Of a stretch of DNA of 40,689 bases, positions 861 through 38,226 are shown piece after piece. The notes beneath the pieces were generated by a model. It made no database searches and had not been told where the DNA came from. It was given only the letters and a program-made list of their open reading frames with translations. The stretch's first letter is position 1. Each line of letters begins with the position of its first letter. Origin of the DNA: a virus; IMG/VR virus record IMGVR_UViG_3300026367_000092, positions 1-40,689 of that record, one strand, 5' to 3'. A program made the position numbers and the translations under genes.

Positions 861-1160
861 GGGGACGCAAACAGGTGTGATGCGCCGCTTGCGTCCCCAT
901 GAAAGGGTGCGGGATTTCAAAGGGTTCGGACGCAAGGGACGATGGGGACGCAAGCCCGCGCCTAAAGTGTGCGCGCGGGATTTCAGGGGTTCGGGGTTAG
1001 AGCGGGCACTCTCTCTATGCGTTATCTCCGGTTTGCGTCCCTATCGTCCCTTGCTTCCCTTTCCTTTCGAATAATCCAGCGAAAACAAAGAGATCAAATC
1101 AATAAGCGAGGGTTGATGTAATGCAAAACAGGGACGCAAACGCCCAAAAGGGGACGCAAA
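861..1160 (+). repeat. Iteron-like GGGGACGCAA repeats, both orientations
   Basis: The decamer GGGGACGCAA or a near copy occurs at 861-870, 944-953, about 928-935 (short form), 1131-1140 and 1150-1159. Inverted copies lie at 889-898 and 1032-1041. A second repeat, gcgggatttca followed by ggggttcgg or aagggttcgg, lies at 909-929 and 975-994. The region 777-1120 has no convincing gene. Repeats of this density beside a replicative helicase are typical of replication origins or of a repressor/replication-protein binding array. The last two copies fall inside the first 14 codons of the next gene. Confidence 0.6.
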
Positions 1161-2134
1161 CCGGTGCCGGGCTCAAAAAGATGACGGTTGACCAGGCTCT
1201 GGCCTGGGCGTGGCGGGATGAGCTGCCCAAGGCGCCGCGCGTGGCTGACGGGCCTGACGGGTTTCTGGCTGCATGGCGCAAGGTCTCCGGCTATGGCGAG
1301 TATCTGACGCTTGTCGACCGGCACGGCATCAACCGCTATGGCGTGGTCCCCGACTTCTCGGCCACCGCCTGGCCACACGCCGATGCGGTGCGGCTGCATG
1401 AGGCGGTTGAAGCACTTGATGGCGCCGAGGTTGATCTGCCCGAAGACTGGCACCCGGCGCCCGAACTCGCCCAATTTGGCGGGCTGGCCATGCGCGCCAT
1501 TGCCCAGGCGGTGCGCGCGGTCTGCCCCGATGGCCGCACATTGCGCATTGTCGCCACTGACCTGGTGTTGCGGCACGTCATTATGGGTGACAGCGAAGCC
1601 TGGCGGATGAACCCCACTGAGCAGAAAATAGAGCGCCATGCCGACGGACGTCCGAAATGGTTTGTCCGCTCAATGATGCCGATGATCACCGGCGTCGACG
1701 GCAAGGGCTCTGACATCGTCGAGATGGTGGAGATCGAAACCAACGGCATGACCGTGGCCGGCAGACTGAAACCCGGCGCGCACCAGAAACACCATCTCGA
1801 CCCAGATCCGCTCGACACCCTGATCGCCCGCGCCCACCGCGAAGTGCTGGCCGACGTGATGGCTTACGTATTCGAAACCTGCGCCGGCCAGCTCGAGACC
1901 ATCGACCTGCAGCAGTCGGAGCTGACAGCGCGGCCATGGGAAGCCGGCGAGGCAAAGCCAGCACGCGTGCTGCCGGATCTGCGGCGGGGCAGGGGTGAAG
2001 CCGTAACCTTCTGGCGCGCCTACCGCGAGAGGTTTCCGCGCGACCATCGGCGGCTGGTGAAGCAGGCGCAGCAGGATGCGGAACGGTTGAGGCGGGGTAG
2101 TGAGACAGTGACGGTTGGAGTGCCGAGGCAGTGA
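1121..2134 (+). CDS. Conserved-looking phage protein, unknown function
   Basis: The 337-residue product is soluble, rich in Asp, Glu, Arg and Trp, with no membrane segment and no motif I can name. It sits downstream of the primase-helicase, as unknown genes often do in rhizobial prophages. The ATG at 1121 has GAGGG eight bases upstream. An alternative ATG at 1181 would exclude two GGGGACGCAA repeats from the coding sequence and remove the low-complexity start (GTQTG), but it has a weaker ribosome binding site. The C-terminal part (LPDLRRGRGEAVTFWRAYRERFP) is strongly basic, which could suit nucleic acid contact. No function is assigned. Confidence 0.65.
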   Translation: MQNRDANAQKGTQTGAGLKKMTVDQALAWAWRDELPKAPRVADGPDGFLAAWRKVSGYGEYLTLVDRHGINRYGVVPDFSATAWPHADAVRLHEAVEALDGAEVDLPEDWHPAPELAQFGGLAMRAIAQAVRAVCPDGRTLRIVATDLVLRHVIMGDSEAWRMNPTEQKIERHADGRPKWFVRSMMPMITGVDGKGSDIVEMVEIETNGMTVAGRLKPGAHQKHHLDPDPLDTLIARAHREVLADVMAYVFETCAGQLETIDLQQSELTARPWEAGEAKPARVLPDLRRGRGEAVTFWRAYRERFPRDHRRLVKQAQQDAERLRRGSETVTVGVPRQ

Positions 2135-2641
2135 GACACGGATACAAAGGGCGGGAATCGGTCATTGATATTGGGTTGCTCGAATAGCAGCTGTGCGGTC
2201 ATCGCGGACGCTGGCCTCGACCCTGTCAATTGCCGCTTTCGGGTGGAAGCGCCCAAAACGGACTTAATATTCAGTTTCGCCGGCCATTGCCGTAGTTCGG
2301 GCGGTTTTGTATTGGAAAACAATAATATAGTCGGATTTGAAGCTATGCGCGGGTATCAACTCCGCCATGCAAGCCCTGATATAGGCGAGTTTGTTAACGT
2401 TGGCGCTTGATAATCTATAGGAAAACGGTCAGAAACTTGCCCCAACGAGCGCAAGGATGCACACTTATACGTGAACACGCCGTGTAGGATATTTGAATTA
2501 TGGTTTTTGCAACATATCTAACGGTCTCGGCTCGGCGATGCGCCGGCGCGCGCGGATGTGTCGCGGACAGAGCATTGTCCGCTCGTCCGCAGCGTGCTCT
2601 ATTAGCGGTTGACAATGTCTCTGGCAGGAAAGGGCAAGCAC
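2135..2641. other. AT-richer intergenic junction before the cargo module
   Basis: No gene in this 500-base stretch is convincing; the only + frame (2165-2410) lacks a good ribosome binding site and protein-like composition. Base composition drops here from GC-rich phage DNA to the AT-richer cargo. A dyad GCGGACA-6 nt-TGTCCGC lies at 2563-2582, about 60 bases before the start of the first cargo gene, where an operator or promoter-proximal hairpin would be expected. No clear promoter hexamers were identified. Confidence 0.4.
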
Positions 2642-3583
2642 ATGTGTAATCTCACCGCTGCCTCTTACCGTCACGGAACTGTCATTGAGGCCTTATACGA
2701 GAGCGGCGAAGTTAAGCCTTTGACAGTTTCAGAGGCGCGCCATGTCGGGATTGCAATCCGTGATCGCCTACCAGAATACATGAGCGCGGCATCAAAGCAC
2801 ATCCTCGATACCACCGGGAAATTTGGCGGAGCGCTTAAATTTGTGGACCCGGAGATTTTTATCGATCCTGACAAAGGTCTTTCATCTCGGTTTGATCCTG
2901 GATTGATCTTGGACCTTCCCAAAATTTCTGTGAGATCCGGTGGTCGTGCAATTGAATTTCGAACTTGCATAACCGTTTGTGTAGGTCCGACAAAAAGCAA
3001 GGTATGGACGCGGGCCAACACGATTGGTGATTGGGGTAAGATCTCGGTTGATGAGCTCAATCACATCCACAAGCTGTTTGACGCAGCTTGCCAAGTGATC
3101 AATTCCGATTTGATCAATAAGTATCAGGAAGATTTCTCGCGCGCGATTGAGGCCAAGGTTCACCTCTCGCTGTATGGTGGAATCCATGTTTTCGCAGCCG
3201 ACTGCACTGGAACTGGAGTTTCGGACGCTCTGGAGCACTTATGCGATACCCTGCATGTGAAACCATCAGATGCTAAAACGATTGAAAACTTTGAATTGGC
3301 AGGCGCGTTGCGCAACGTGACGGATGTTGCTGCTATTGATGAAGCCCGCGATGCAAATAACGGCGAAGAGTTTGCTTTAGGCGAAAAAGCGAAATTTTAT
3401 CCGTACCGCGGATCAAACGGAGCAGGTTCTGTTTTTGTACGGTATGCAAACAATAAAGATGCATATTTCTCAGGCATCGTTAACGGCAGCCATGGCGGGA
3501 GACCTGAAGGTCTGGAGGCTCTTGATTCCAATAGTATTGGAACAACAGCAGAAATTGCAGCTTTCTTTGGGGCGGCATTTTAG
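2642..3583 (+). CDS. Unrecognised cargo protein paired with nitrilase-like gene
   Basis: This 313-residue protein starts at the ATG at 2642, which follows AGGAAAGGG at good spacing. A TTG at 2609 and an ATG at 2615 are in frame upstream but lack such a site. I do not recognise the family. The sequence has no signal peptide or membrane segment. It shows alternating beta and helix stretches: an N-terminal helical part, a central strand-rich part around ITVCVGPTKSKVWTRANT, and a Gly-rich C-terminal third (GGIHVFAADCTGTG, YRGSNGAGSVFVRYANNKD). It lies 28 bases upstream of the nitrilase-like gene and shares its AT-rich, relaxed codon use, unlike the flanking phage genes. Both probably form one transferred two-gene unit. 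The role is unknown. Confidence 0.7.
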   Translation: MCNLTAASYRHGTVIEALYESGEVKPLTVSEARHVGIAIRDRLPEYMSAASKHILDTTGKFGGALKFVDPEIFIDPDKGLSSRFDPGLILDLPKISVRSGGRAIEFRTCITVCVGPTKSKVWTRANTIGDWGKISVDELNHIHKLFDAACQVINSDLINKYQEDFSRAIEAKVHLSLYGGIHVFAADCTGTGVSDALEHLCDTLHVKPSDAKTIENFELAGALRNVTDVAAIDEARDANNGEEFALGEKAKFYPYRGSNGAGSVFVRYANNKDAYFSGIVNGSHGGRPEGLEALDSNSIGTTAEIAAFFGAAF

Positions 3584-3611
3584 CTAACGTCTCCGCACTG
3601 GGGTATATTAA

Positions 3612-4889
3612 GTGCAGGGTGGGGCCGTGAATTCCGATGAAGCTTTGGGTTTTGGAAAAACTATTGACGCACGGGCTGAGAAGGCTTTCTGGCATGCACA
3701 TCTTGTTCTAGATGATTTTAGCAAGCACGGAGATCCTGAGTCGCTAGCAATATCGAGCGGCCAGTTAACGGTAGAGCAGGCCGCCTTGCGTGTGATTGCT
3801 CTGTGCGCTCGTGATACATACCGACTAAAGCCGCAGAAGCTATCAAGTGTCGAAAAAAAAGACGCGCTTGACGATGAAGAGGTGACGATTGCTGCAATAG
3901 CGATGGGTCGCAATGACATCGGTCTTCCAGACAAACACCCGGACGAAAAAACTGCCGATGAGGTTATGCCGCTGCGTTTTGAAGCGGTAGGTGATTTTGT
4001 GTTCACGTCAGTGAACAGGAATGGAGATCCGGAATACGACAAAGACGCGTGGGAAGCTGAGCGGCTCTCATACTTGGACCGATGCCTCAAGGAACGTGCC
4101 AACATTATTTGCTTAGGTGAGTTTGATTTTCCCCCTCAACAGGCCGGTGTTGATGATGACTCGTTCGCAGCCGCTGTGCTGGCAAAAATCAACGGGTATG
4201 ACTTTCCTGTTTTCGTGGTTGCGGGGTCAAGGCATGAATATCATCAAAGTGGACCTTCATGTCACAACGTTGCTAGGATTATTGTAAATAACGCACTTAA
4301 CACGGCGCCGGCTGGTTACAGCAAGCCAAGCGTATACAGGCACAACAAGGTCATTCCTGCAGCAAAAGTTGGTGAGCGGCTGTCAGCTCCAGATGGCATC
4401 GTTGCGCAGTATTATGATACCAAACTTGGTAGGATCGCCGTCCTAATCTGTGTCGACGCCTACAATCCAACATTGATGTTCTCGCTGTTTGATCCCAAGC
4501 TGCGCCAAAGAGGTGGGGCAGACGAAAATGATTCGGATAGGCTCGATTTCATTCTTGTTCCGGCCTACAATTATAGCCCGAAACTTTATTATTCCTGCCA
4601 GGTTCTGAGTCTCCTTTGTAAATGCACAGTTTTGCTTGTCGATGCATGCAGTCACTGGTCAGAAAAAGGCAAACTCAAGTGTCATGAGGTTGAGCTCTTC
4701 TTCAATGGCCGGTCAATTGATGATCGCCTGCGCAAAAGCGCCGAAATCGGGTCATCCGTTGTTAACGACGAACATGTGAAGGTTTGGCGCCTAAAAAGGA
4801 ACTTTCTGCGAGCTGCCGAAACAGAAATTCACGGTAGTAAACCAACCCCGTCCTTTGATGCGCTTGGGGCCTATCTCGACAATCTCTGA
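3612..4889 (+). CDS. Carbon-nitrogen hydrolase (nitrilase superfamily) fold protein
   Basis: A 425-residue protein whose residues from about 160 to 345 match the nitrilase fold. The catalytic Glu is in LGEFDFPP (E170), the Lys in RHNKVIPA (K246) and the nucleophile Cys in AVLICVDAYNP (C280). Family enzymes hydrolyse amide or nitrile bonds through a thioester. About 150 residues precede the core, far more than in ordinary nitrilases, and are mostly helical with no known motif. A tail of about 75 residues follows. The substrate is unknown. A nitrilase domain is also fused to reverse transcriptase in the DRT type 1 anti-phage system, so a defence role is possible but inferred. The start is GTG at 3612 or GTG at 3627; both have purine-rich sites. 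Confidence 0.8.
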   Translation: MQGGAVNSDEALGFGKTIDARAEKAFWHAHLVLDDFSKHGDPESLAISSGQLTVEQAALRVIALCARDTYRLKPQKLSSVEKKDALDDEEVTIAAIAMGRNDIGLPDKHPDEKTADEVMPLRFEAVGDFVFTSVNRNGDPEYDKDAWEAERLSYLDRCLKERANIICLGEFDFPPQQAGVDDDSFAAAVLAKINGYDFPVFVVAGSRHEYHQSGPSCHNVARIIVNNALNTAPAGYSKPSVYRHNKVIPAAKVGERLSAPDGIVAQYYDTKLGRIAVLICVDAYNPTLMFSLFDPKLRQRGGADENDSDRLDFILVPAYNYSPKLYYSCQVLSLLCKCTVLLVDACSHWSEKGKLKCHEVELFFNGRSIDDRLRKSAEIGSSVVNDEHVKVWRLKRNFLRAAETEIHGSKPTPSFDALGAYLDNL

Positions 4890-4930
4890 GTTCCGATGAG
4901 CTTTTTAGTGCGGTTTCGCATGTCCCTGGT

Positions 4931-5068
4931 ATGGATCCAGATGTGGTCCGTGCCGCTCAAGCATTCGAGATCATTACTATGTTTACCGATTTTCTACGTG
5001 ACACATTGGTGCGTGAACCCTACTGGATCTGCCAGTCAAGTGCGGGGGCGAATACACAAGGCCGTTGA
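4931..5068 (+). CDS. Possible short third cargo ORF or shifted nitrilase tail
   Basis: The frame open from 4859 to 5068 overlaps the end of the nitrilase gene in the -1 frame. Past the nitrilase stop it reads as a plausible acidic, helical peptide (SSDELFSAVSHVPGMDPD, then RAAQAFEIITMFTDFLRDTL). Its first ATG is at 4931 and has no obvious ribosome binding site, giving 45 residues. It may be a separate small protein, an alternative-start gene coupled to the nitrilase, or the original C-terminus of the nitrilase lost by a frameshift. The competing frame starting at ATG 4896 looks less protein-like. Confidence 0.25.
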   Translation: MDPDVVRAAQAFEIITMFTDFLRDTLVREPYWICQSSAGANTQGR

Positions 5069-5124
5069 CATGCGCGAGAATTTGGTGGTTACTCAGCCAC
5101 GGTAAAACAGATTGAATTGCTCGA

Positions 5125-5158
5125 TTCGCCCCGACCGGCTTCCCCGAATCGGGGCGAA
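5125..5158. repeat. 10-bp perfect inverted repeat after cargo
   Basis: TTCGCCCCGA at 5125-5134 and its reverse complement TCGGGGCGAA at 5149-5158 are separated by 14 bases. A shorter hairpin, CCCCGAATCGGGG, is nested at the right arm. No T run follows, so it is not a standard intrinsic terminator. It lies where base composition returns to that of the phage and could be a boundary or transcript-end structure. Confidence 0.5.
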
Positions 5159-5257
5159 GTCGTCTCGGAGGGTGTGGAATTGCGGCGGCGGACAATGCGA
5201 GCCGGCGTGACGGACGAAGCGCATCTCACCCTGAAAAGGACAACAGACCATTCACAG

Positions 5258-5285
5258 ACCCGCTGGCAACCCCGGCGGGTTTTTT
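5258..5285 (+). terminator. Intrinsic terminator between cargo and structural operon
   Basis: ACCCGC (5258-5263) pairs with GCGGGT (5275-5280) around an 11-base loop and is followed directly by TTTTT. This insulates the cargo island from the morphogenesis genes that begin at 5302. Confidence 0.75.
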
Positions 5286-5301
5286 CGTGGGAGATCGTCT
5301 T

Positions 5302-5853
5302 GTGACCGGTGCTGCCTTGAAAATCGACGCAAGTGACTTCCGCGCGCTCGGTGCGGCAATGCATCGCCTGCCTGCTGACTTGAAGGCCAAGGCGTTTCGC
5401 TCGGCGGTCAATCACACTGGCAAGAAAGCCCGCACGCAGGTCGCGCGGCTTGCAGCATCCTATTCAGGTCTGCCGTACCGGTTTGTCCGAGGGGCGGCTC
5501 AGATGCGGCTGACCGGCGACGATGTCGAGATCAAACTGCGGTCGCGCTGGATTTCATTGGGGCAACTGGGCGCCCGGCAAACCCGAAAGGGTGTGAGTGT
5601 TCGCGGTCGTGGCTCTTACGCCAGCGCGTTCATTGCATCGTCGAAGATTTCGGGCAGCCAGGCTGTCCTGTCCCGCAAGGGATCATCTCGATTGCCGGTG
5701 CGTGAACTCTATGCCGCCAACCCGGCCCACGCCATGGGTGCTGACCGGCACGGCGAGTTCGAACGGCTCGCTCAATCAATCATGGACCGCGACTTCGCGG
5801 CCCGTCTCATTCACGAGGTCGACCGTCGTCTCGCCCGTCTATCCGCTCGCTAA
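5302..5853 (+). CDS. Phage minor tail protein Z-like (tail completion)
   Basis: The 183-residue product begins with a short strand (LKIDASDFRALGAAM) and then a basic helical section (FRSAVNHTGKKARTQVARLAA), and continues GLPYRFVRG. This pattern is seen in prophage minor tail protein Z (GPZ) and related tail-completion proteins. Such proteins sit at the head-proximal end of the tail. The GTG at 5302 has GGGAG nine bases upstream. An in-frame GTG at 5287 would lie directly on the terminator T-tract and is less likely. Its position ahead of the terminase genes, apart from the other tail genes, is unusual compared with lambda, where Z follows the head genes. Family call is moderate. Confidence 0.6.
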   Translation: MTGAALKIDASDFRALGAAMHRLPADLKAKAFRSAVNHTGKKARTQVARLAASYSGLPYRFVRGAAQMRLTGDDVEIKLRSRWISLGQLGARQTRKGVSVRGRGSYASAFIASSKISGSQAVLSRKGSSRLPVRELYAANPAHAMGADRHGEFERLAQSIMDRDFAARLIHEVDRRLARLSAR

Positions 5854-6701: not shown

Positions 6702-8707
6702 CGGTGCATCCTGGGGCCTTGCAGCTGGTGGCTTCGCGGCTGGCCGAAGCCATCCGGCCGCGGCCGCCGGTGCCATTCGATGTCTGGCTCACGAAAAACG
6801 TGGTGCTGGTTGACGGACCTCGAAAGGGGGAACTCTGGTCGCCGGCCGATGCGCCTTATCTGGTGGAGATAGCCAAGTGTCTCAGTCAGGAACATCCGGC
6901 CAATCTGGTGACCGTGAGAAAGGCGCAGCAGACAGGGGTGACAATCCTGGCGCTGGCGTGGTGTCTCTACATAGCGGAGATTTGCCCGGACAATATCCTG
7001 TACGGAGTGCCGGGGCTTGATGCCCTGCAGGATATCAACGGGCAGAAGCTACAGCCGCTGATCGACGCCTGGCAGGTCAAGACCGGCAAACGGATCATTC
7101 TGCCGGTGACCAGCCGGTCTGGGCGCAATTCGACAAGTTACGAGAAGCGGTTCCCGGGCGGTTACATATCGCTTGCGAATGCGAACACGGTGATGGACCT
7201 GTCCATGAAGACCTGCCGTTTCGGGGTCAAGGATGAGGTTTCGAAATGGGGTGAACTGGCGAACGGCGCGGATCCAGAGACCTTGTTCTTCGGGCGGTTT
7301 ACGGCGTTCCGCCGTCAGAAGACTTTCAAGATATTCGAGCTGTCGACGCCGGAGGACGATTCTGGCGACGCGCTCGGCGACGATCCTGGACATTGCCGGA
7401 TAGACCGCTCGTTTAAGCGGTCCGACCAGCGTTTCTGGTTTGTCGAATGCGCGGAGTGCAAGGACCATTTCGTGCAATCCGACGATCACTTTCAGGTGGA
7501 CCGGGAGCAGCCGCTCAAGAGCGTGATGGTTTGCCCGCATTGCGGTCACTGGATTACCGAATCCGAACGGGTCCAGATGGTTCGTGCTGGGCATTACCGG
7601 CCAACACAAGCAGGTCCGGACCGGCATCCGGGGTTTCATGTGGACGCTTTCATGAGCCTGCTCATGAGCCTCGGTGATATCGCCGATGACAAGCTCAAGG
7701 CTGAAAAGCGCGGTGAAGCCGGGGCCAAGGACTATCACAATCTGGTGCTGGCACTGCCCTATCAGATGAGGGGCAATGCGCCTGACTGGCAACGGCTCAT
7801 GGAACGCCGCGAGGATTATCCGGACGGTGTCATACCGCCGGAAGGCTTGATCTTTGTCGCGGGCGCTGACGTGCAGCACAGCGGTATCTACGTGGAGTAT
7901 GTGGCTTTCGCGCCGGACCGCCAGTCGTGGTCGGTTCATGCAGAGTTTCTCGAGGGAGAAACTGACGACAAGAATGCCGGGGCATGGGTGAAACTGGACC
8001 GGCTTTATCGAACCGAATGGCCGGATTCGTTCGGGAAGACGCGCCGGGCCGGAGCTACGGCTGTTGACGCCGGCGACGGCAACCGAACCACGCAAGTGCT
8101 GGAGTGGTGCAGGGAACGACCGGATACCTATGCAATCGCAGGCAAGCACGGCCGTGGTGTTCCAGCGATCGGAGTGCCGACAAAAAAATCTGTCCGCAAG
8201 GGCGGCAAGCGCAAGCGGTTTGGCTCAACCATGCTCTGGCCGCTCGGCACATGGTCGCTGAAAGGCGAGTTTTACGGGAATTTGCACAGGCTTGGTCTCA
8301 GATCCGGCGAGCCGGCCGACCCACCGGGGTACTGCCATTTCAACGAGGCCCGCAATGAGGAGTATTTCCGCCAGGTGACGGCTGAGTATTTCGACCAGAA
8401 GATGCTGCGGGGCCGGGTCCTCGAGGAATGGAAAGTTACGCGGCGGGATAACCACTTTCTCGATTGCCGGATCTACGCCATGGCGATGGCGGAACATCTC
8501 GATTTATCTCGCCTGACACCGGCCGGATGGGCGGCATTGAGAGCACAACTTACGCCGCAAGGACAGCAGACGCTGTTCACTCCGCCGTCCAAACAGATCA
8601 CAGCGCGCCTTGCGCAGGAATCACCAGTTGATGTGCTGTCCACAACGGCAGCATCAGGCAAAGAGCCATCGGACAGCGTCCTGGCAAAATGGAAAAGGCG
8701 AAAATGA
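6698..8707 (+). CDS. Terminase large subunit, GpA family
   Basis: The 669-residue motor-nuclease packages phage DNA into the prohead. The N-terminal ATPase shows a variant Walker A (VRKAQQTGVT, residues 73-82) and a Walker B-type acidic pair in GVKDEVSKW (D179, E180). A zinc-ribbon-like pair follows (CAEC at 251-254, CPHC at 279-282), as in lambda-like GpA proteins. The C-terminal nuclease half has the first acidic residue in GADVQH (D391) and further acids in VDAGDGNRT (D457, D460). Length matches the family. It overlaps the small terminase by four bases and the portal gene by four. Confidence 0.93.
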   Translation: MTVHPGALQLVASRLAEAIRPRPPVPFDVWLTKNVVLVDGPRKGELWSPADAPYLVEIAKCLSQEHPANLVTVRKAQQTGVTILALAWCLYIAEICPDNILYGVPGLDALQDINGQKLQPLIDAWQVKTGKRIILPVTSRSGRNSTSYEKRFPGGYISLANANTVMDLSMKTCRFGVKDEVSKWGELANGADPETLFFGRFTAFRRQKTFKIFELSTPEDDSGDALGDDPGHCRIDRSFKRSDQRFWFVECAECKDHFVQSDDHFQVDREQPLKSVMVCPHCGHWITESERVQMVRAGHYRPTQAGPDRHPGFHVDAFMSLLMSLGDIADDKLKAEKRGEAGAKDYHNLVLALPYQMRGNAPDWQRLMERREDYPDGVIPPEGLIFVAGADVQHSGIYVEYVAFAPDRQSWSVHAEFLEGETDDKNAGAWVKLDRLYRTEWPDSFGKTRRAGATAVDAGDGNRTTQVLEWCRERPDTYAIAGKHGRGVPAIGVPTKKSVRKGGKRKRFGSTMLWPLGTWSLKGEFYGNLHRLGLRSGEPADPPGYCHFNEARNEEYFRQVTAEYFDQKMLRGRVLEEWKVTRRDNHFLDCRIYAMAMAEHLDLSRLTPAGWAALRAQLTPQGQQTLFTPPSKQITARLAQESPVDVLSTTAASGKEPSDSVLAKWKRRK

Positions 8708-30964: not shown

Positions 30965-32173
30965 ATGCCCCACAACTCCCCTTCCGACCCCTCCGGTTGC
31001 TTTATCGAACGTCTGAACCTCTCTCCTGTAGGAACAGGTGTGCTCGATGGAACAACCTTTACTGTGAAGGACAATATCGACATTGCCGGGTACAAAACCT
31101 CTTATGGCAGCCCGGCTTGGAGAGACGCGCACCCGGCACCCAAGTACAATGCGCTTTGTGTTGACCAGATGTCCGCCGCAGGGGCGCGTTGCGTGGGCAA
31201 GGTTGTCGCGGATGAATATACCTACAGTCTGGATGGCGAAAGCCAGTTTTTCGGCACACCGCGCAACGCGAAAGCGCCGGAACGTATTCCGGGAGGCTCG
31301 TCAAGCGGATCGGCGGCATCGGTTGCCAATGGGGTCGCAGATTTTTCAATTTGCACGGATTCCGGCGGGTCGATCCGTGTTCCTGCCAGCCTTTGCGGAA
31401 TCTGGGGAATACGCCCCTCTTTGCATAGGGTTTCTGAGGCTGGGGTGCTGCCCTTTATGCCAAGTGTCAGCACCGTGGGTATCCTTGCAGAACACTTCGA
31501 GCATTTGGATGCGGCAACTCGTGTTTTATTGCACAGCAGACCTGATCTGAAAGAACCTTTGCAACGCATCTTGGTCTTGTCCGACGCAATGGAGGTCGCG
31601 GACGAAGAGGTGCGAGAACAGGCGTTTGGTGAATTGGAAAAAATTGCGCGCCGCACAGGCCTTTCATTGGAACCCGTCCGCTTTTCGCAGATCGTAGGTG
31701 AAGACATCCCGCTAAGCGATTGCAACACAAAAGCGCTTCGAAATCTGATGACGGCAGAGTTTCAAAACACAGTGGGGTCTTGGATCGAGACGAACAAGCC
31801 AGAGCTTGGTTTTGCATTCTCTATGGCATACGGCAATGTTCAGGACTCTGTCCGCACAGCCAACCTGGAAAGCATTGCGCGTTGCGAACAGTTTTTTAGA
31901 GAAATCAATGACTACCTTACGCCGGGTACCGTCATCTGCTTTCCCACCACCCCTGTCATTGCGCCGTTAAAGGGTTCGCTTACCAACAGCGACGCGGTTC
32001 TGGATTTCTACGACAGGACGATGACGATTACTGCCTTTTCCGGTGTTGGCCGCCTTCCCGAGATTTCAGCGCCGCTACTGACGGTCGACGGATGCCCTGT
32101 CGGCCTGTCCTTCGCGGCCAGACATTATCAGGACGAATTCTTGCTTGAGGCTGTTAGGCAAATGTTAGGGTGA
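30965..32173 (+). CDS. Amidase-signature family enzyme
   Basis: The 402-residue protein has the complete amidase signature: Lys in FTVKDNID (K35), cis-Ser in PGGSSSGSA (S112) and nucleophile Ser in TDSGGSIRVPAS (S136). The enzyme hydrolyses amide bonds. The overall size and the compact TVKDNIDIAGYKTSYGS start resemble AMI1-type amidases. The substrate cannot be read from sequence. It lies outside the phage operons, in the second accessory segment, with weak ribosome binding site AGAGA. It has no signal peptide. Confidence 0.85.
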   Translation: MPHNSPSDPSGCFIERLNLSPVGTGVLDGTTFTVKDNIDIAGYKTSYGSPAWRDAHPAPKYNALCVDQMSAAGARCVGKVVADEYTYSLDGESQFFGTPRNAKAPERIPGGSSSGSAASVANGVADFSICTDSGGSIRVPASLCGIWGIRPSLHRVSEAGVLPFMPSVSTVGILAEHFEHLDAATRVLLHSRPDLKEPLQRILVLSDAMEVADEEVREQAFGELEKIARRTGLSLEPVRFSQIVGEDIPLSDCNTKALRNLMTAEFQNTVGSWIETNKPELGFAFSMAYGNVQDSVRTANLESIARCEQFFREINDYLTPGTVICFPTTPVIAPLKGSLTNSDAVLDFYDRTMTITAFSGVGRLPEISAPLLTVDGCPVGLSFAARHYQDEFLLEAVRQMLG

Positions 32174-32629: not shown

Positions 32630-35600
32630 TCAGTGCGGAGAGGCCAAATGTGGCCAAGGTCGGCCACTGTAAATGTCAGGGTGTCTCGGCTCATCCTCCG
32701 TGGCCCTATATTCCTGCCGGATCATGTCAATGCGGGTCATGTAGTCCACCGCGAACGCCGCATGGTCCTTGTCGGGAGACACCGTCAAAGCGAACAACTC
32801 CCGCCGAAGCGCGGAAGCGTTGCGCGGCCTGAGCTCATAGGACGTTCCGTCAGGGCTATGCGGCTCTTTGGTGTAGATCATCTCCTGTACACCGCGTTCT
32901 CCCTGCCGGCGGATGACCTGCTGCCCCACAAGGGATCGTGCCGCGGCCAGCAAGCCGTCGACGGAAGAGGTTTTCAGAAGAACGGAGAAGACCAGCGCTT
33001 TCGCTCTGTCGGAGCGAGCTTCGGCCAGTTTTTCGAAGAGGTAGGTTTCATCGTCGTCTGCCATGGCGTAGGCGAGCTGTTCAGTCAGCAGGAAATGGCC
33101 CGAGCTCAGGTCGAAGCCTTTCCCGAGGTCACCCTCGACTCCCTGGAGAAGGAGGTCCATCGCCGCGCGGAAGCCAAGTTTTCGTACTTGGTCGAACCAC
33201 TCATGCTCCGACAGCATGTCAGGAAATTTGAGGGCAAACTCACGCAACATATGCGCCCGTTTTTCGACATCCAGGAGCCTGAGCTGGGGCAGAATATCTC
33301 GGATACGCCACCTCGAAAGGTTATTTTCAGGTACGAGCGCCAAGGCATCAAAAACAGAATCGGGGCGGTCGGTGTTCGGGAACACTTTCAGCCAACTGAA
33401 CATCGCGTACGATGTCTGGTCGTCCCACCACCTGTCCTCCTTCTCGGCCAAGAATTTTCCGAATTCTTGAAGCACTAAGTTGGCCGGAGGCAGCAGACCA
33501 CCCACGATCATTCCGTTGAACAAGTCGAGTTTGGTGTGAGAGGTGACCTCGAACCCCGCAATCTTTGTCATCAACTCTGGTCGGGCTATATGCGGCATGA
33601 CGACGGCAATGGCGGCCATCGCCACGGCACACCCGTGTGGCGGCTCGGCCGAAGCTAGTTCCACCGCTACGTCAAGCATGCTCTCGGCAGCATCAAGCGA
33701 AAGTTCAGGCTGGCTTGACCTTCTTTCACGTGCAGATTGGGCGCGATCCAGATCGGGCCATACATTTGCACGCTTCTCCAAGAGAGCCGGCATAGCGATG
33801 AGGCGAAGTGCGATGGCCGCGTCATGGCCAAACTCGGGATGCCGCAGCAAGGACTTTGCAACCTCGTATGCCTCGTCGGAGCCGATCTCGTAGAGCGCCT
33901 GCCGGTATGACAAGGCATGAGAGGTGCGCCATTCGTTCAGAGCCTCCCGGTCACGGCCCTTCGTGGCCAGCTCCTTGAGTGCACCCCGCTGATTGAGGTC
34001 CTCGTGTAGGAATGCCGAGACCCACTTCATTTCTGACGGGTCCGGCACCCGCCGCATGGCATCCACCACCTCCGCCATGTCGTGCCGTGACGGTGGTCCG
34101 GACGCCATCAGGCAATCCGCCCAGCCGTTCAGCGCTTCAACGAGCTTGCGGCGCGCTTCTGCCGGAATGTCGTCCATGCGCTCGTTCGTGCCGTGCTTGC
34201 CGTGGACGGTGATGAGGTCGGCGAGTGCCTCGATATCGCTCTGGTTCTGGATGGCCGAGAATGACGCGATCGCTTCGACGAACGCCTCGGGCCGCGTAGC
34301 TGATATCTTGTCTCGCAGCAGCTTCAAGGGGGCATATTGCTGCGAGGTCGGCATGCCGTTCGCATAGATTTGGGGCTTGAGCGCCAGGAATTCACGTATC
34401 ATCCGCGAGATGATGCCGGGTCCCGCCAGGAAGAGTGCGCCGCCAGTGCGCTCATCAACCTTCGCGCTACCATCGATGATGTTCGTGAGTTCCGCGGCCT
34501 CGCTGACTGGCTGGGGCGACAGATAACCCTGTACCCGGAAGGGCAATGAGAGGTCGGCCAGAATCCGATCCTGCAACGCCGTTGCAACGACTGCAGGAAA
34601 CGAGCTTGCGGCCTGATGGAACGCGGCCCTTGTATTTTCGGCATGGAGGTCCAACTTTTTGTCGCGCAGGATGCCTTCGAGTTCGGCGGCGTCCCCTGAA
34701 ATCTCGGCCTTGCGGGTACAGCGCGCAAGGCTGCGGGGAACGCTTGGGTTTGCCTTGGCATCCTCCTCCTGCAGCGCTCGTAAACGCCTCAGGACGTGCG
34801 GGGCCGTTAATCCGTCGAAATAGTCCCGTTCGGCGACGCGTTGCCAAACCGCATCCTCCGCGCCATCCAGCACCTCTGTAGCTTGCCGGGGTGCGCCGCG
34901 GAAATGCAACGCCTCGATTGCTTCGGACTTGACCTCGACGCTGAGGTCCCGCTTGGCGAGGTCGAGCGCTGTCTCCAGCGCTTCGATGCCCCCCCCGAAG
35001 ATCAACCCTGACACGAGTCTTTCCCGAACACGCTCCTCCAACTGCTCGTAATCCTTCTTCAGGTGATCTCCGAAAACAGTCGGACGGATACGGTCACCGA
35101 GGTGGAGAGCTTCACCTTGGATTTGGTCACTAGAGTTGGATACGAGCGGCCAAACAAGGTCGGCAAAATCAGCACGGCCCGTCTTCATCATAAAGCCGAC
35201 GGCCAAATCCACCTTATCGGCTTGGTGCCAAGCCCGGGCAAAAGCCTGCACCTCGGCTGAGACCAAGGCCCAAACGGCGTCTCCTGTCCGATATACCATT
35301 TCCGCCGCGAGCATCGGTCCGACCGACATCGTAAGTCTTACCGCCTGGGCGACGATGGCGGCACCAGATGCATCCATCGCAAGACGCTCGCATGCAAAGA
35401 GAATAGCTTCTTCCCACAGCCGATCATTGAGAAGCTCCTGGGCGAAACTGCTCTCGAGGCCAGCGTCCTTGGGAAGGTCACGCATTCTTGCCTCGACATG
35501 ACCGGCGGCGTACCACTCCTGAAATTGCTGGTGCTGGAAGGCGTAGATGTCGCCTTCGCCAAGTACCAGCACATGGGTAGCGACGAGGGTCTCCAAGACG

Positions 35601-37048
35601 CTGGCTGGTTCAGGGGCGTTCTGGACCAGTCCTTCGGCCAACAACTTGGCGTTGGTCGCCCTCAGGGACTGTCGTGCTGCCGTGTCATCCAGCGCTGTAG
35701 TCCGCGCCTGCATCATGGCAACAGCCAGGTCACCCAGATAACGCCGGTGTTGCCCCAGCATGCTTTGTCGGAGTTGCTCGGCGCGTTCGGGAATGTCTTC
35801 ATGCTGTTTCACCAGCAGCGCAATCGTGCCCTCCTTGGACGTGGGGAATGCGCCGGCATCTCCAACCTGCAGGAGGGCCTCAAGATAAAACGGGATTCGG
35901 GCGAGGTCACGGACACCAGAGGTCCTGCGCACGCGGTCCAACAAGTCCTGCCCGACACTTCCGTGCCTTGATGTCATCTCCTCCTGCTGCTCGTCGGAGA
36001 GCGACTCGACGTGAATCGTCCGCGCAACGAACGGCACTGCAGCGGCCTGCGGGCGGGTGGTAATGCAGATAACGAGGAGCGGAAATTCACGCCCGAGCGC
36101 CCGCATGGTCTTGATGAGCGCCAGCCGCGCGGCCGGTGTCACCTCGTTCCATCCATCTAGCAGGAACGCTATTTCGCCGTGCGACGCGAGGAACTTGAGA
36201 TGATCTGACCGGATTCCCGTAAATGCCTGACGAGCGGCAATCCACGCAAAGAGGTCGTCGACGCTATGGCCGACTTCGGCGAGAGGGACCAACAATGGCA
36301 GCGGTCCGCTTTCCAACAGTGTGGCACCGAGCTGTACCAACGTGGTCGACTTGCCCTGACCCGGTTCGGCCACAAGGTCGAGGATGCCACACGACCGGAG
36401 TGCTGCGGCCATTTCGACGTGCGTGAATGACCTGCCCCGGGATGAAGCCGCTGTCAGGTAGAGTGAAACAGCATGGGCGGGACCCTGTTCAGAAAATGTC
36501 TCGATGTGGCGCTGCGCTGCCGAACGCACCCTTTCAAATAAGGCTGGCAGGCCCTCGCTCTCTGGAAGAGCAAACTGCTGGCGGAGATATCCAAGGGCTT
36601 CCGCAAGCTCTGCGCCCATGGGCTCCACGCGAGCGCGACCACCCGTGAGCAGTTGTTCAAACGCCCTTTCCTCCGCGTCCTTCTTCCATTTGTGGAGCAA
36701 TTCCACCGGGAATGCCTTTTCGTCATGGTCGATCTGGTGAGCGTGATCGCTACAGAGCCAGATACCATTTTCCGGCGCTTTCCGTTCTTCCCGGGTCAAC
36801 CGGGCGTCGTAACGCGCAAAGCCCTCCGAGGCAGCCGTGATATGCGCCGCAACGCCGATGTTCATCGTGCCGGAACCGCCCTTTTGCGGGCCGACAGTCG
36901 GTTTGGTACACACCGGGTTGGAGCATAGCCATCCAACACGTTGGGCCATGAGCCGCTTGGTCGGTTCGGTGAAATTGTCGCGCTGACTTTTGCCGGAGGA
37001 CGCAACTGAGGTGGATGTCGTGGTGGTTACTTCGGAACTGATGCTCAT
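32630..37048 (-). CDS. HNH-NACHT STAND protein, candidate anti-phage effector
   Basis: The 1472-residue protein begins at ATG 37048 on the reverse strand. An HNH-like treble-clef module occupies about residues 26-120: Cys pair in WLCSNPVCT, His in AAHIT, then ENGIWLCSDH. A NACHT-type NTPase follows, with Walker A in EPGQGKST (about 228-235), Walker B in FLLDGWNEV (about 295-303), an Arg in ITTRP, and the family's FQHQQFQEWYAAG motif near 515. The remaining 900 or so residues are helical repeats, the usual sensor part. The layout fits bacterial NLR-like (STAND) defence proteins: a nuclease effector, an oligomerising NTPase and a sensor. Antiviral action is inferred, not shown. Confidence 0.82.
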   Translation of the reverse strand: MSISSEVTTTTSTSVASSGKSQRDNFTEPTKRLMAQRVGWLCSNPVCTKPTVGPQKGGSGTMNIGVAAHITAASEGFARYDARLTREERKAPENGIWLCSDHAHQIDHDEKAFPVELLHKWKKDAEERAFEQLLTGGRARVEPMGAELAEALGYLRQQFALPESEGLPALFERVRSAAQRHIETFSEQGPAHAVSLYLTAASSRGRSFTHVEMAAALRSCGILDLVAEPGQGKSTTLVQLGATLLESGPLPLLVPLAEVGHSVDDLFAWIAARQAFTGIRSDHLKFLASHGEIAFLLDGWNEVTPAARLALIKTMRALGREFPLLVICITTRPQAAAVPFVARTIHVESLSDEQQEEMTSRHGSVGQDLLDRVRRTSGVRDLARIPFYLEALLQVGDAGAFPTSKEGTIALLVKQHEDIPERAEQLRQSMLGQHRRYLGDLAVAMMQARTTALDDTAARQSLRATNAKLLAEGLVQNAPEPASVLETLVATHVLVLGEGDIYAFQHQQFQEWYAAGHVEARMRDLPKDAGLESSFAQELLNDRLWEEAILFACERLAMDASGAAIVAQAVRLTMSVGPMLAAEMVYRTGDAVWALVSAEVQAFARAWHQADKVDLAVGFMMKTGRADFADLVWPLVSNSSDQIQGEALHLGDRIRPTVFGDHLKKDYEQLEERVRERLVSGLIFGGGIEALETALDLAKRDLSVEVKSEAIEALHFRGAPRQATEVLDGAEDAVWQRVAERDYFDGLTAPHVLRRLRALQEEDAKANPSVPRSLARCTRKAEISGDAAELEGILRDKKLDLHAENTRAAFHQAASSFPAVVATALQDRILADLSLPFRVQGYLSPQPVSEAAELTNIIDGSAKVDERTGGALFLAGPGIISRMIREFLALKPQIYANGMPTSQQYAPLKLLRDKISATRPEAFVEAIASFSAIQNQSDIEALADLITVHGKHGTNERMDDIPAEARRKLVEALNGWADCLMASGPPSRHDMAEVVDAMRRVPDPSEMKWVSAFLHEDLNQRGALKELATKGRDREALNEWRTSHALSYRQALYEIGSDEAYEVAKSLLRHPEFGHDAAIALRLIAMPALLEKRANVWPDLDRAQSARERRSSQPELSLDAAESMLDVAVELASAEPPHGCAVAMAAIAVVMPHIARPELMTKIAGFEVTSHTKLDLFNGMIVGGLLPPANLVLQEFGKFLAEKEDRWWDDQTSYAMFSWLKVFPNTDRPDSVFDALALVPENNLSRWRIRDILPQLRLLDVEKRAHMLREFALKFPDMLSEHEWFDQVRKLGFRAAMDLLLQGVEGDLGKGFDLSSGHFLLTEQLAYAMADDDETYLFEKLAEARSDRAKALVFSVLLKTSSVDGLLAAARSLVGQQVIRRQGERGVQEMIYTKEPHSPDGTSYELRPRNASALRRELFALTVSPDKDHAAFAVDYMTRIDMIRQEYRATEDEPRHPDIYSGRPWPHLASPH

Positions 37049-37230
37049 GATCAAATCTTAGCGCCGTTCGGGCCAGCGGCAAAGAACAATGAACACACAA
37101 AACACAGGCGCTCCATTCGTCTTGATCACTCTGAGCAAGATTGTGATTTCCGGGGACGGTCATCTCATAGCGTTGGAGAAGTGGCGTTCGATGGCGGGTA
37201 AGTGATAGGAAACTGGATCAGGAGGTGCCT

Positions 37231-37473: not shown

Positions 37474-37613
37474 TCGCAAAAGGGCCATGACGATGAGAAC
37501 GAAGCCAGCTGCTGTCCGGTTATTGTCCGCTTTCAGCCGAACAGACGTGAACATATCATGCTCAAGTCAATCCACCTTGATTGATTCCATTGAGCTTTTG
37601 CGCACATCCCCCC

Positions 37614-37659
37614 GTTCGGGACGACGGGGTCGGAGGTTCGAATCCTCTCACTCCGACCA
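37614..37659 (+). tRNA. 3' half of tRNA-Pro (CGG type), attachment-site remnant
   Basis: The stretch reads as a CGG anticodon loop (TTCGGGA, 37615-37621), its 3' stem, the T arm (GGAGG TTCGAAT CCTCT, 37632-37648) and acceptor 3' strand CACTCCG with ACCA (37649-37659). The bases before it do not form a D arm or 5' acceptor strand, so this is not a working tRNA. A displaced 3' half in this orientation is the mark of an integrase attachment site at the far end of an element. Confidence 0.75.
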
Positions 37660-37775
37660 GTCTTTCCAATTGATATTGCTGGTTAATTCCGCTTTGCGCG
37701 GCGATAGCGAAAGAGCTGCCGCCCCTACCAATTTCCCCAGAAGACGTTTCGCATAGGATAAGAAGTAGGTGGAGC

Positions 37776-37825
37776 CCTGGTTTGGGGCCAGAGGGTCGCA
37801 GGTTCGAATCCTGCCGCTCCGACCA
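37776..37825 (+). tRNA. 3' half of tRNA-Pro (TGG type), second attachment remnant
   Basis: An anticodon arm with loop TTTGGGG (37781-37787) and near-complete stem CCTGG/CCAGA is followed by the T arm (GCAGG TTCGAAT CCTGC, 37798-37814) and acceptor strand CGCTCCG with ACCA (37815-37825). Again the 5' half is absent. The acceptor differs from the first fragment, so it derives from a different tRNA-Pro gene. Confidence 0.7.
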
Positions 37826-38226
37826 ATCAACCCTTTGAGTAATAAGACTTCCCCTCAACGTCACACATTTCAGCAAGGAACCATTCTGCGTCAGCGGCGG
37901 AAATCCCGACAGTAAAGATCAGCGACAATAACGCGGATGCGCAATCTGCGAATAGGTTCCGTCGTTCACGATACTGCTGTCCAGTATGAATTTTTAGACA
38001 AGGTGTATGGCGCTGATTTTAATTGATTTTATGCGTTTTCCGCAGATTAATTATAAGTTCCATTTCGCTATATGAGCTTTAGAAGCCGTTTATGACTACT
38101 GGTAAGCCCCAGCAAAATTACGTTTCATACTCTTCTCTGTCGCCGGGATTCTAAACTAATTTATCCCCCTATGAATATAGTTACATATGATCGTCCTGCT
38201 TATCAACTGATCGTATGAGGCGAACC
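37826..38226. other. AT-rich intergenic region
   Basis: No gene is supported in this 400-base stretch. It becomes clearly AT-rich after about 37980 and would include the promoter of the next gene. Chromosomal sequence probably resumes here, after the tRNA fragments. No repeats or hairpins of note were found. Confidence 0.5.

What the first reader, a model, noticed from the sequence alone, without database searches (positions are those of the whole stretch)
2135..5285. Two-gene nitrilase cargo module inside the prophage
An AT-rich unit, with an unknown 313-residue protein and a 425-residue protein with an intact Glu-Lys-Cys nitrilase triad, sits between the replication and packaging genes. This is a place where prophages often carry defence or conversion genes. 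The nitrilase has an unusual N-terminal extension of about 150 residues. Nitrilase domains occur in DRT type 1 defence proteins, but a stand-alone pair like this is not one I know. It is closed by a terminator, so it looks like an independent unit. The defence role is inferred from place and composition.
Basis: partly seen in the sequence, partly recalled or inferred. Interest (0 to 1): 0.75.

Follow-up and report, generated by a model that had tools for sequence, protein, structure and literature searches.

The report
Swappable prophage cargo: nitrilase gene pair
A virus of Hoeflea-like marine bacteria carries, in a slot where its relatives carry nothing or quite different genes, a foreign two-gene unit (a nitrilase-type enzyme plus a protein of no known family) that also occurs as the same pair in an unrelated genome, so it is probably a mobile, possibly virus-fighting, module, although what it does has not been tested.

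Summary
Window 2135-5285 has two co-directional foreign genes: an orphan 313-aa protein and a nitrilase-superfamily protein with an intact Glu170-Lys246-Glu255-Cys280 tetrad. They lie between an early-region gene and the packaging genes of a temperate Rhizobiales (Hoeflea-type) phage. (1) The slot is a real cargo site: empty in at least six related prophages, and holding unrelated cargo (a TPR-repeat protein; a secreted eCIS-core/HExxH-like protein) in two others, behind the same 150-bp right border. (2) The pair is a unit: the only other homologue found is the same pair, same order (52% and 58% identical), in a genome of another bacterial family; DNA similarity starts about 14 bp before gene 1 and none is found beyond gene 2. 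(3) The prophage also carries an apparent HNH-NACHT defence-type gene (32630-37054). The pair is not DRT1 (no reverse transcriptase) and not CARF-nitrilase (only the nitrilase half matches). Function is unproven: anti-phage defence is the best single reading (about 0.45), ahead of lysogenic conversion. The terminator cited as closing the unit belongs to the phage backbone. No published system with this architecture was found.

The parts
1121..2134 (+). Left flank: phage early-region gene (phrog_9306); its DNA is 86% identical to Hoeflea prophage L020 up to about base 2100, where the similarity stops
2135..5061 (+). Inserted cargo segment, 49.6% GC
   Evidence: absent from L008, L010, L011, L012/L018, L019, L021; replaced by other genes in L006/L007 and L020
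2642..3583 (+). Gene 1: orphan 313-aa protein (P0001), conserved Met-Cys start and conserved C terminus
   Evidence: no family match in any library; 52% identical partner gene in G113
3612..4889 (+). Gene 2: nitrilase-superfamily protein, at most 425 aa (start may be 3627 or 3645); N-terminal region about 1-120 of unknown kind, nitrilase domain about 121-425; E170, K246, E255, C280
5062..5212 (+). Right-border segment shared by all three occupied sites and missing from empty ones: promoter-like TTGACA-17-GTTACT and inverted repeat TTCGCCCCGA/TCGGGGCGAA
   Evidence: the promoter role is inferred
5268..5281 (+). Terminator-like hairpin; belongs to the phage backbone, since the empty sites have it too
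5287..5853 (+). Right flank: Minor_tail_Z-like gene that opens the terminase/late block
32630..37054 (-). Second likely defence gene of the same prophage: 1474-aa HNH + NACHT (STAND) protein with NCAB2 domain

Best explanation
The unit is a horizontally acquired two-gene cargo module ('moron') in a swappable slot between the early region and the late operon of a Hoeflea-type temperate phage. SHOWN: it is an insertion, it is foreign in composition, the two genes stay together elsewhere, and both are under purifying selection. INFERRED: in the lysogen the two proteins work as a defence (superinfection exclusion or abortive infection) system. The nitrilase, whose Cys280 thiol would be activated by Glu170/Lys246/Glu255, is the effector: it attacks a C-N bond (amide or nitrile) of a metabolite or cofactor the invading phage needs, or makes a toxic product. 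The orphan 313-aa protein is its partner (sensor, activator or safety lock). This would work like the nitrilase half of DRT1, which is held inactive until infection, but with a different controller.
For: Empty sites in at least six relatives and two unrelated cargoes at the same borders. Pair conserved in order in a genome of another family, with similarity limited to the two genes and the start region. Foreign GC3. Complete nitrilase tetrad conserved and profile-profile support. Best matches in PADLOC are the nitrilase parts of CARF-nitrilase (1.2e-4) and, for the homologue, RT-nitrilase (8.8e-4). The same prophage carries an HNH-NACHT gene. DRT1 shows that a nitrilase can be an abortive-infection effector (PMC13275509), and phage hotspots of variable genes are rich in defence systems (PMC9122126).
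Against: Only one other locus, on a 3,741-bp contig without neighbours. The other cargoes of the slot are not known defence genes. The PADLOC and Pfam matches are weak, and by hhalign the nitrilase is no closer to DRT nitrilases (0.013) than ordinary nitrilases are (0.017). Another RT-nitrilase-type stand-alone nitrilase (L059) sits in a polysaccharide cluster, so such domains are not only defensive. Gene 1 has no assignable function.
Confidence: 0.45

Rival explanations
1. Lysogenic-conversion or metabolic cargo: the pair gives the lysogen a fitness trait unrelated to phages, for example detoxifying or using nitriles or amides, or modifying a small molecule or cell component; gene 1 is an accessory protein.
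For: The other cargoes of the slot (a secreted eCIS-core/HExxH-like protein in L020 and a TPR-like protein in L006/L007) look more like conversion genes than defence genes. The profile is closest to ordinary nitrilases by hhalign. A stand-alone RT-nitrilase-type protein lies in a polysaccharide cluster elsewhere.
Against: No metabolic neighbour, transporter or regulator at either locus; very patchy distribution (1 of 397 Rhizobiales genomes, 0 of 398 in the phylum sample, 0 of 395 in the host family); the partner is an orphan.
Confidence: 0.28
2. Toxin-antitoxin-like stabilisation: the nitrilase is toxic and gene 1 neutralises it, so that the pair holds the prophage or its slot in place; any defence would be a by-product.
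For: Two adjacent co-directional genes kept together across families.
Against: Gene 1 (313 aa) is large for an antitoxin, and no nitrilase toxin-antitoxin pair is known to me; nothing tested here bears on toxicity.
Confidence: 0.12
3. A lytic-cycle gene pair: read through from the early operon and used by the phage itself during infection (host take-over or counter-defence).
For: Same strand as, and directly downstream of, the early/replication genes; no sigma-70-like promoter was found on the + strand upstream.
Against: A 507-bp leader without a supported gene separates it from the early gene; foreign composition; absent from nearly all relatives, so not needed for the lytic cycle.
Confidence: 0.12

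Closest known systems
DRT type 1 and UG5 RT-nitrilase systems (PMC13275509; PMC9122126)
   Same: A nitrilase domain with a Glu-Lys-Cys active site in a mobile or phage-borne accessory locus; the nitrilase would be the effector
   Different: No reverse-transcriptase or alpha-helical repeat domain here: the protein is at most 425 aa against about 1,230 aa, and it has a separate orphan partner. The sequence is no closer to DRT nitrilases than ordinary nitrilases are
CARF_m7 CARF-nitrilase (PADLOC PDLC01989)
   Same: N-terminal region followed by a nitrilase domain; best PADLOC match (E=1.2e-4)
   Different: The match covers only the nitrilase half (profile 213-332 of 457); there is no CARF match, and no CRISPR genes are near it
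N-extended nitrilase of L063/L064 (operon with MarR-like wHTH and KGGVGR ATPase, PADLOC candidate PDC-M28B)
   Same: Stand-alone nitrilase of 460 aa with a long N-terminal region; shared G-S-x-H-E, Lys and Cys motifs (hhalign E=3e-4)
   Different: Different N-terminal region and different partners
Hotspots of antiviral systems in P2-like phages and P4-like satellites (PMC9122126)
   Same: One fixed slot in a temperate element filled by different foreign genes
   Different: Another phage group (GpA-terminase Rhizobiales phages), another site (before the Minor_tail_Z/terminase block), and only two or three cargoes seen, none proved defensive

Membership tests
Nitrilase superfamily | Glu-Lys-(Glu)-Cys catalytic residues in the proper order and context | tested here: met
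   E170, K246, E255, C280 invariant in both members; LGEFDFP, HNK and ICVDAYNP contexts align with ordinary nitrilases around Lys and Cys
Nitrilase superfamily | Significant sequence-profile similarity | tested here: met
   hhalign E=8e-7 to ordinary nitrilases against 0.3-0.8 for controls; Pfam CN_hydrolase alone is below its cut-off
Nitrilase superfamily | alpha-beta-beta-alpha sandwich fold | tested here: inconclusive
   single-sequence AlphaFold model has pLDDT 35
DRT type 1 (RT-nitrilase) | Reverse-transcriptase domain in the same protein or next door | tested here: not met
   no RT match in either protein or the flanks
DRT type 1 (RT-nitrilase) | Nitrilase specifically related to the DRT nitrilase clade | tested here: not met
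   hhalign 0.013, the same as ordinary nitrilases reach (0.017)
CARF-nitrilase | CARF sensor domain before the nitrilase domain | tested here: not met
   only nitrilase positions of PDLC01989 match
Prophage cargo (moron) in a variable slot | Site empty in relatives, other cargo at the same borders, foreign composition | tested here: met
Prophage cargo (moron) in a variable slot | Expressed from its own promoter in the lysogen | not testable with these tools
   needs RNA data; the consensus scan was uninformative
Anti-phage defence system | Reduces phage infection when expressed | not testable with these tools
   needs plaque assays
Anti-phage defence system | Recurs in defence islands or next to known systems | tested here: inconclusive
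   one other locus only, on a 3,741-bp contig without neighbours; the window prophage carries an HNH-NACHT gene 28 kb away

The most novel reading that the evidence does not exclude
An undescribed two-component defence family in which a stand-alone, N-extended nitrilase is the infection-triggered effector and an orphan protein of a new family is its sensor or safety lock, so that nitrilase effectors exist outside reverse-transcriptase and CARF systems.
Probability: 0.35. Interest if true: 0.75.

Novelty: new variant of a known kind. Interest (0 to 1): 0.5.

Why it matters
Nitrilase domains are a rare and unexplained effector in phage defence; even for DRT1 the substrate is unknown (PMC13275509). 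If the defence reading is right, a small module in which the nitrilase is free of the reverse transcriptase would be a simpler system in which to find what such nitrilases cut. The slot itself, with three unrelated cargoes and clean empty-site controls, is a ready place to look for new prophage cargo in Rhizobiales phages.

Tried and rejected
tblastn against 50,697 phages and 72,556 plasmids found no relative of either protein. Viral-contig scans with the single proteins, with the two-member alignments and with degenerate DNA motifs returned only an identical sibling contig of the same phage or, for the Cys motif, stretches that encode no relative; a scan for the right-border sequence also returned only the sibling. 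The genome-collection scan with the nitrilase found nothing. DRT1 and CARF membership were tested and rejected. The idea that the Met-Cys start of gene 1 makes it an N-terminal-nucleophile hydrolase was considered; nothing supports it beyond conservation in two sequences. The 81-aa ORF at 2165-2410 and the 69-aa ORF at 4896-5105 have no match that supports a gene. The right border is not an unusually stable RNA as a whole (z=-1.1).

Full report
WHAT IS THERE. Two genes on the + strand, 2642-3583 (313 aa, P0001) and 3612-4889 (at most 425 aa, P0002), 28 bp apart, fill a 3.15-kb gap between a phage early-region gene (1121-2134, phrog_9306, E=1.5e-33) and a Minor_tail_Z-like gene (5287-5853) that opens the terminase/late block. 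The window is a whole IMG/VR virus record. Its terminase is 66% identical to that of Rhizobium phage PPF1 and 80-90% identical to those of prophages in Hoeflea genomes and a Hyphomicrobiales MAG, so the host is most probably a Hoeflea-like Rhizobiales bacterium. An identical 14.6-kb sibling contig from metagenome 3300022150 supports the assembly.

THE SLOT IS A CARGO SITE. In six related phages or prophages (L008, L010, L011, L012/L018, L019, L021) the same two flanking genes are only about 100-200 bp apart, i.e. the site is empty. In L006/L007 the site holds an unrelated TPR-like tandem-repeat protein. In the Hoeflea prophage L020 it holds a 416-aa protein with a signal-peptide-like start, an HEMHH motif and a marginal eCIS_core match (E=7.5e-4). 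In L020 the left flank is 86% identical to the window up to base 2100, and similarity resumes at window 5062. All three occupied sites share a 150-bp right border (window 5062-5212) that the empty sites lack: a promoter-like TTGACA-17-GTTACT and the inverted repeat TTCGCCCCGA...TCGGGGCGAA. At empty sites a TTGACA box lies just before the CATCTCACCCTGAAAAGGA element; at occupied sites that box is gone. I infer, without test, that the border carries a replacement late promoter. The terminator at 5268-5281 is common to occupied and empty sites, so it is backbone.

THE PAIR IS A UNIT. Of 397 Rhizobiales genomes, one (G113) encodes a relative of P0002 (59%, E=3e-163). Directly before it lies a relative of P0001 (52%), in the same order. 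G113 belongs to a small family distinct from that of Hoeflea. DNA similarity begins about 14 bp before gene 1, and none was found beyond gene 2; changes pile up at third positions (206 of 411 and 253 of 496), dS is saturated and dN is 0.43 and 0.36, so both genes are real and constrained. P0001 was found nowhere without P0002 in samples of 385 and 139 genomes searched with its own profile. The contig in G113 is 3,741 bp long and shows no other clear gene, so its wider context is unknown. GC3 of the pair (0.45-0.48) differs from the other genes of the window (0.56-0.76) and resembles the G113 copies (0.49-0.51). The family is rare: no further hit in 398 genomes of the phylum or 395 of the host family.

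WHAT GENE 2 IS. It is a remote member of the nitrilase superfamily. Direct hmmscan gives sub-threshold CN_hydrolase matches (0.032; 0.0048 for the homologue). hhalign of the two-member profile against two ordinary nitrilases gives E=8e-7, while two unrelated alignments give 0.3 and 0.79. Glu170, Lys246, Glu255 and Cys280 are invariant. The nitrilase domain starts near residue 120 (DFVFTSVN strand, helix, then NIICLGE), leaving an N-terminal region of about 115-120 residues without any match. Against four RT-type nitrilases the score is 0.013, the same as ordinary nitrilases reach against them (0.017), so the protein is not specifically of the DRT clade. The best PADLOC match is the nitrilase half of CARF-nitrilase (1.2e-4). 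A different N-extended nitrilase, L063, shares the G-S-x-H-E, Lys and Cys motifs (3e-4) and lies in an operon with a MarR-like wHTH protein and a KGGVGR ATPase that matches the PADLOC candidate PDC-M28B.

WHAT GENE 1 IS. Unknown: no match above chance in Pfam, PADLOC, NCBIfam, PHROGs or the PDB for either member. Conserved features are a Met-Cys start, RFDPGLILD, a GPxKSKxWTRANT stretch, IHVFAADC, RGSNGAGSxFV and the extreme C terminus GTTAEIAAFFGxAF.

HOW IT MOST LIKELY WORKS. Shown: foreign, paired, constrained, swappable cargo of a temperate phage, with a catalytically complete nitrilase. Inferred: it is made in the lysogen, and on infection by another phage the orphan partner releases or activates the nitrilase, which hydrolyses a C-N bond in an essential small molecule or makes a toxic product and stops the infection. 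This is argued by analogy with DRT1, in which DNA adducts and filaments hold a nitrilase inactive until a phage signal and whose substrate is unknown (PMC13275509), and with hotspots of defence genes in P2-like phages and P4-like satellites, which include an RT-nitrilase with a transmembrane partner (PMC9122126). The same prophage carries at 32630-37054 (-) a 1474-aa protein with an HNH domain (PDC-M68A E=7e-22; PDB 9om4 HNH endonuclease E=9e-6), a P-loop (AEPGQGKST) and a NACHT C-terminal NCAB2 domain (E=8e-26), so it already looks like a carrier of defence genes. Against this stand the non-defence look of the other cargoes of the slot and the single extra locus. I put defence at 0.45, conversion or metabolism at 0.28, TA-like stabilisation at 0.12 and a lytic-cycle role at 0.12.

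NOVELTY. No paper found describes this pair; literature searches for nitrilase in defence returned only RT-nitrilase systems. The library holds open-licence papers only, so absence there is not proof. The pair is best filed as a new variant of prophage cargo with a candidate nitrilase effector; it is not a DRT and not a CARF system.

Noticed in passing
window 32630-37054 (-): 1474-aa HNH + NACHT (NCAB2) STAND-type protein, a likely anti-phage gene near the right end of the prophage.
   Followed up: partly
window 37609-37662 and 37775-37828: Two 78% identical copies of a tRNA 3' half ending in CCGACCA, 166 bp apart, with no whole tRNA found by ARAGORN; probable attachment-site remnants at the prophage's right border, just beyond the NACHT gene.
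   Followed up: partly
window 5062-5212, L006 about 1024-1175, L020 about 8426-8575: Conserved border segment (promoter-like box and strong inverted repeat) present only when the slot is filled; the second TTGACA box of the empty sites is lost there. May show how cargo is swapped.
   Followed up: partly
L020:7145-8395: Alternative cargo in a Hoeflea prophage: 416-aa protein with signal-peptide-like start, HEMHH motif and marginal eCIS_core match, GC3 0.43.
   Followed up: partly
L007:225-1223 and L006:1-820: Alternative cargo: protein of near-identical 132-bp (44-aa) TPR-like tandem repeats; the two contigs suggest copy-number variation.
   Followed up: no
L064:3-3053 (G532): Operon of an N-extended nitrilase, a MarR-like wHTH protein and a KGGVGR ParA-like ATPase (PDC-M28B match): another possible nitrilase-effector defence system.
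   Followed up: partly
L059:1435-2328 (G480): Stand-alone RT-nitrilase-type nitrilase (E=4.5e-104 to the RTasNitrilase profile) between a flippase-like protein and a glycosyltransferase, in a polysaccharide cluster and without a reverse transcriptase next to it.
   Followed up: no
window 30965-32173: Amidase-signature gene (PF01425, E=7e-62) in the same prophage, between a DNA methyltransferase and the NACHT gene; another C-N hydrolase cargo candidate.
   Followed up: no
L022 (JAHREI010000012.1): Contig labelled Bacillus subtilis SK6B4 holds a Rhizobiales-type prophage (terminase 69% identical); probably a contaminated or mislabelled assembly.
   Followed up: no
L049:276-443 and 930-1098: Two diverged (73%) copies of a 170-bp non-coding repeat upstream of the gene pair in G113, plus a 32-bp inverted repeat (845-876 / 1093-1124); possible traces of the element that moved it.
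   Followed up: no
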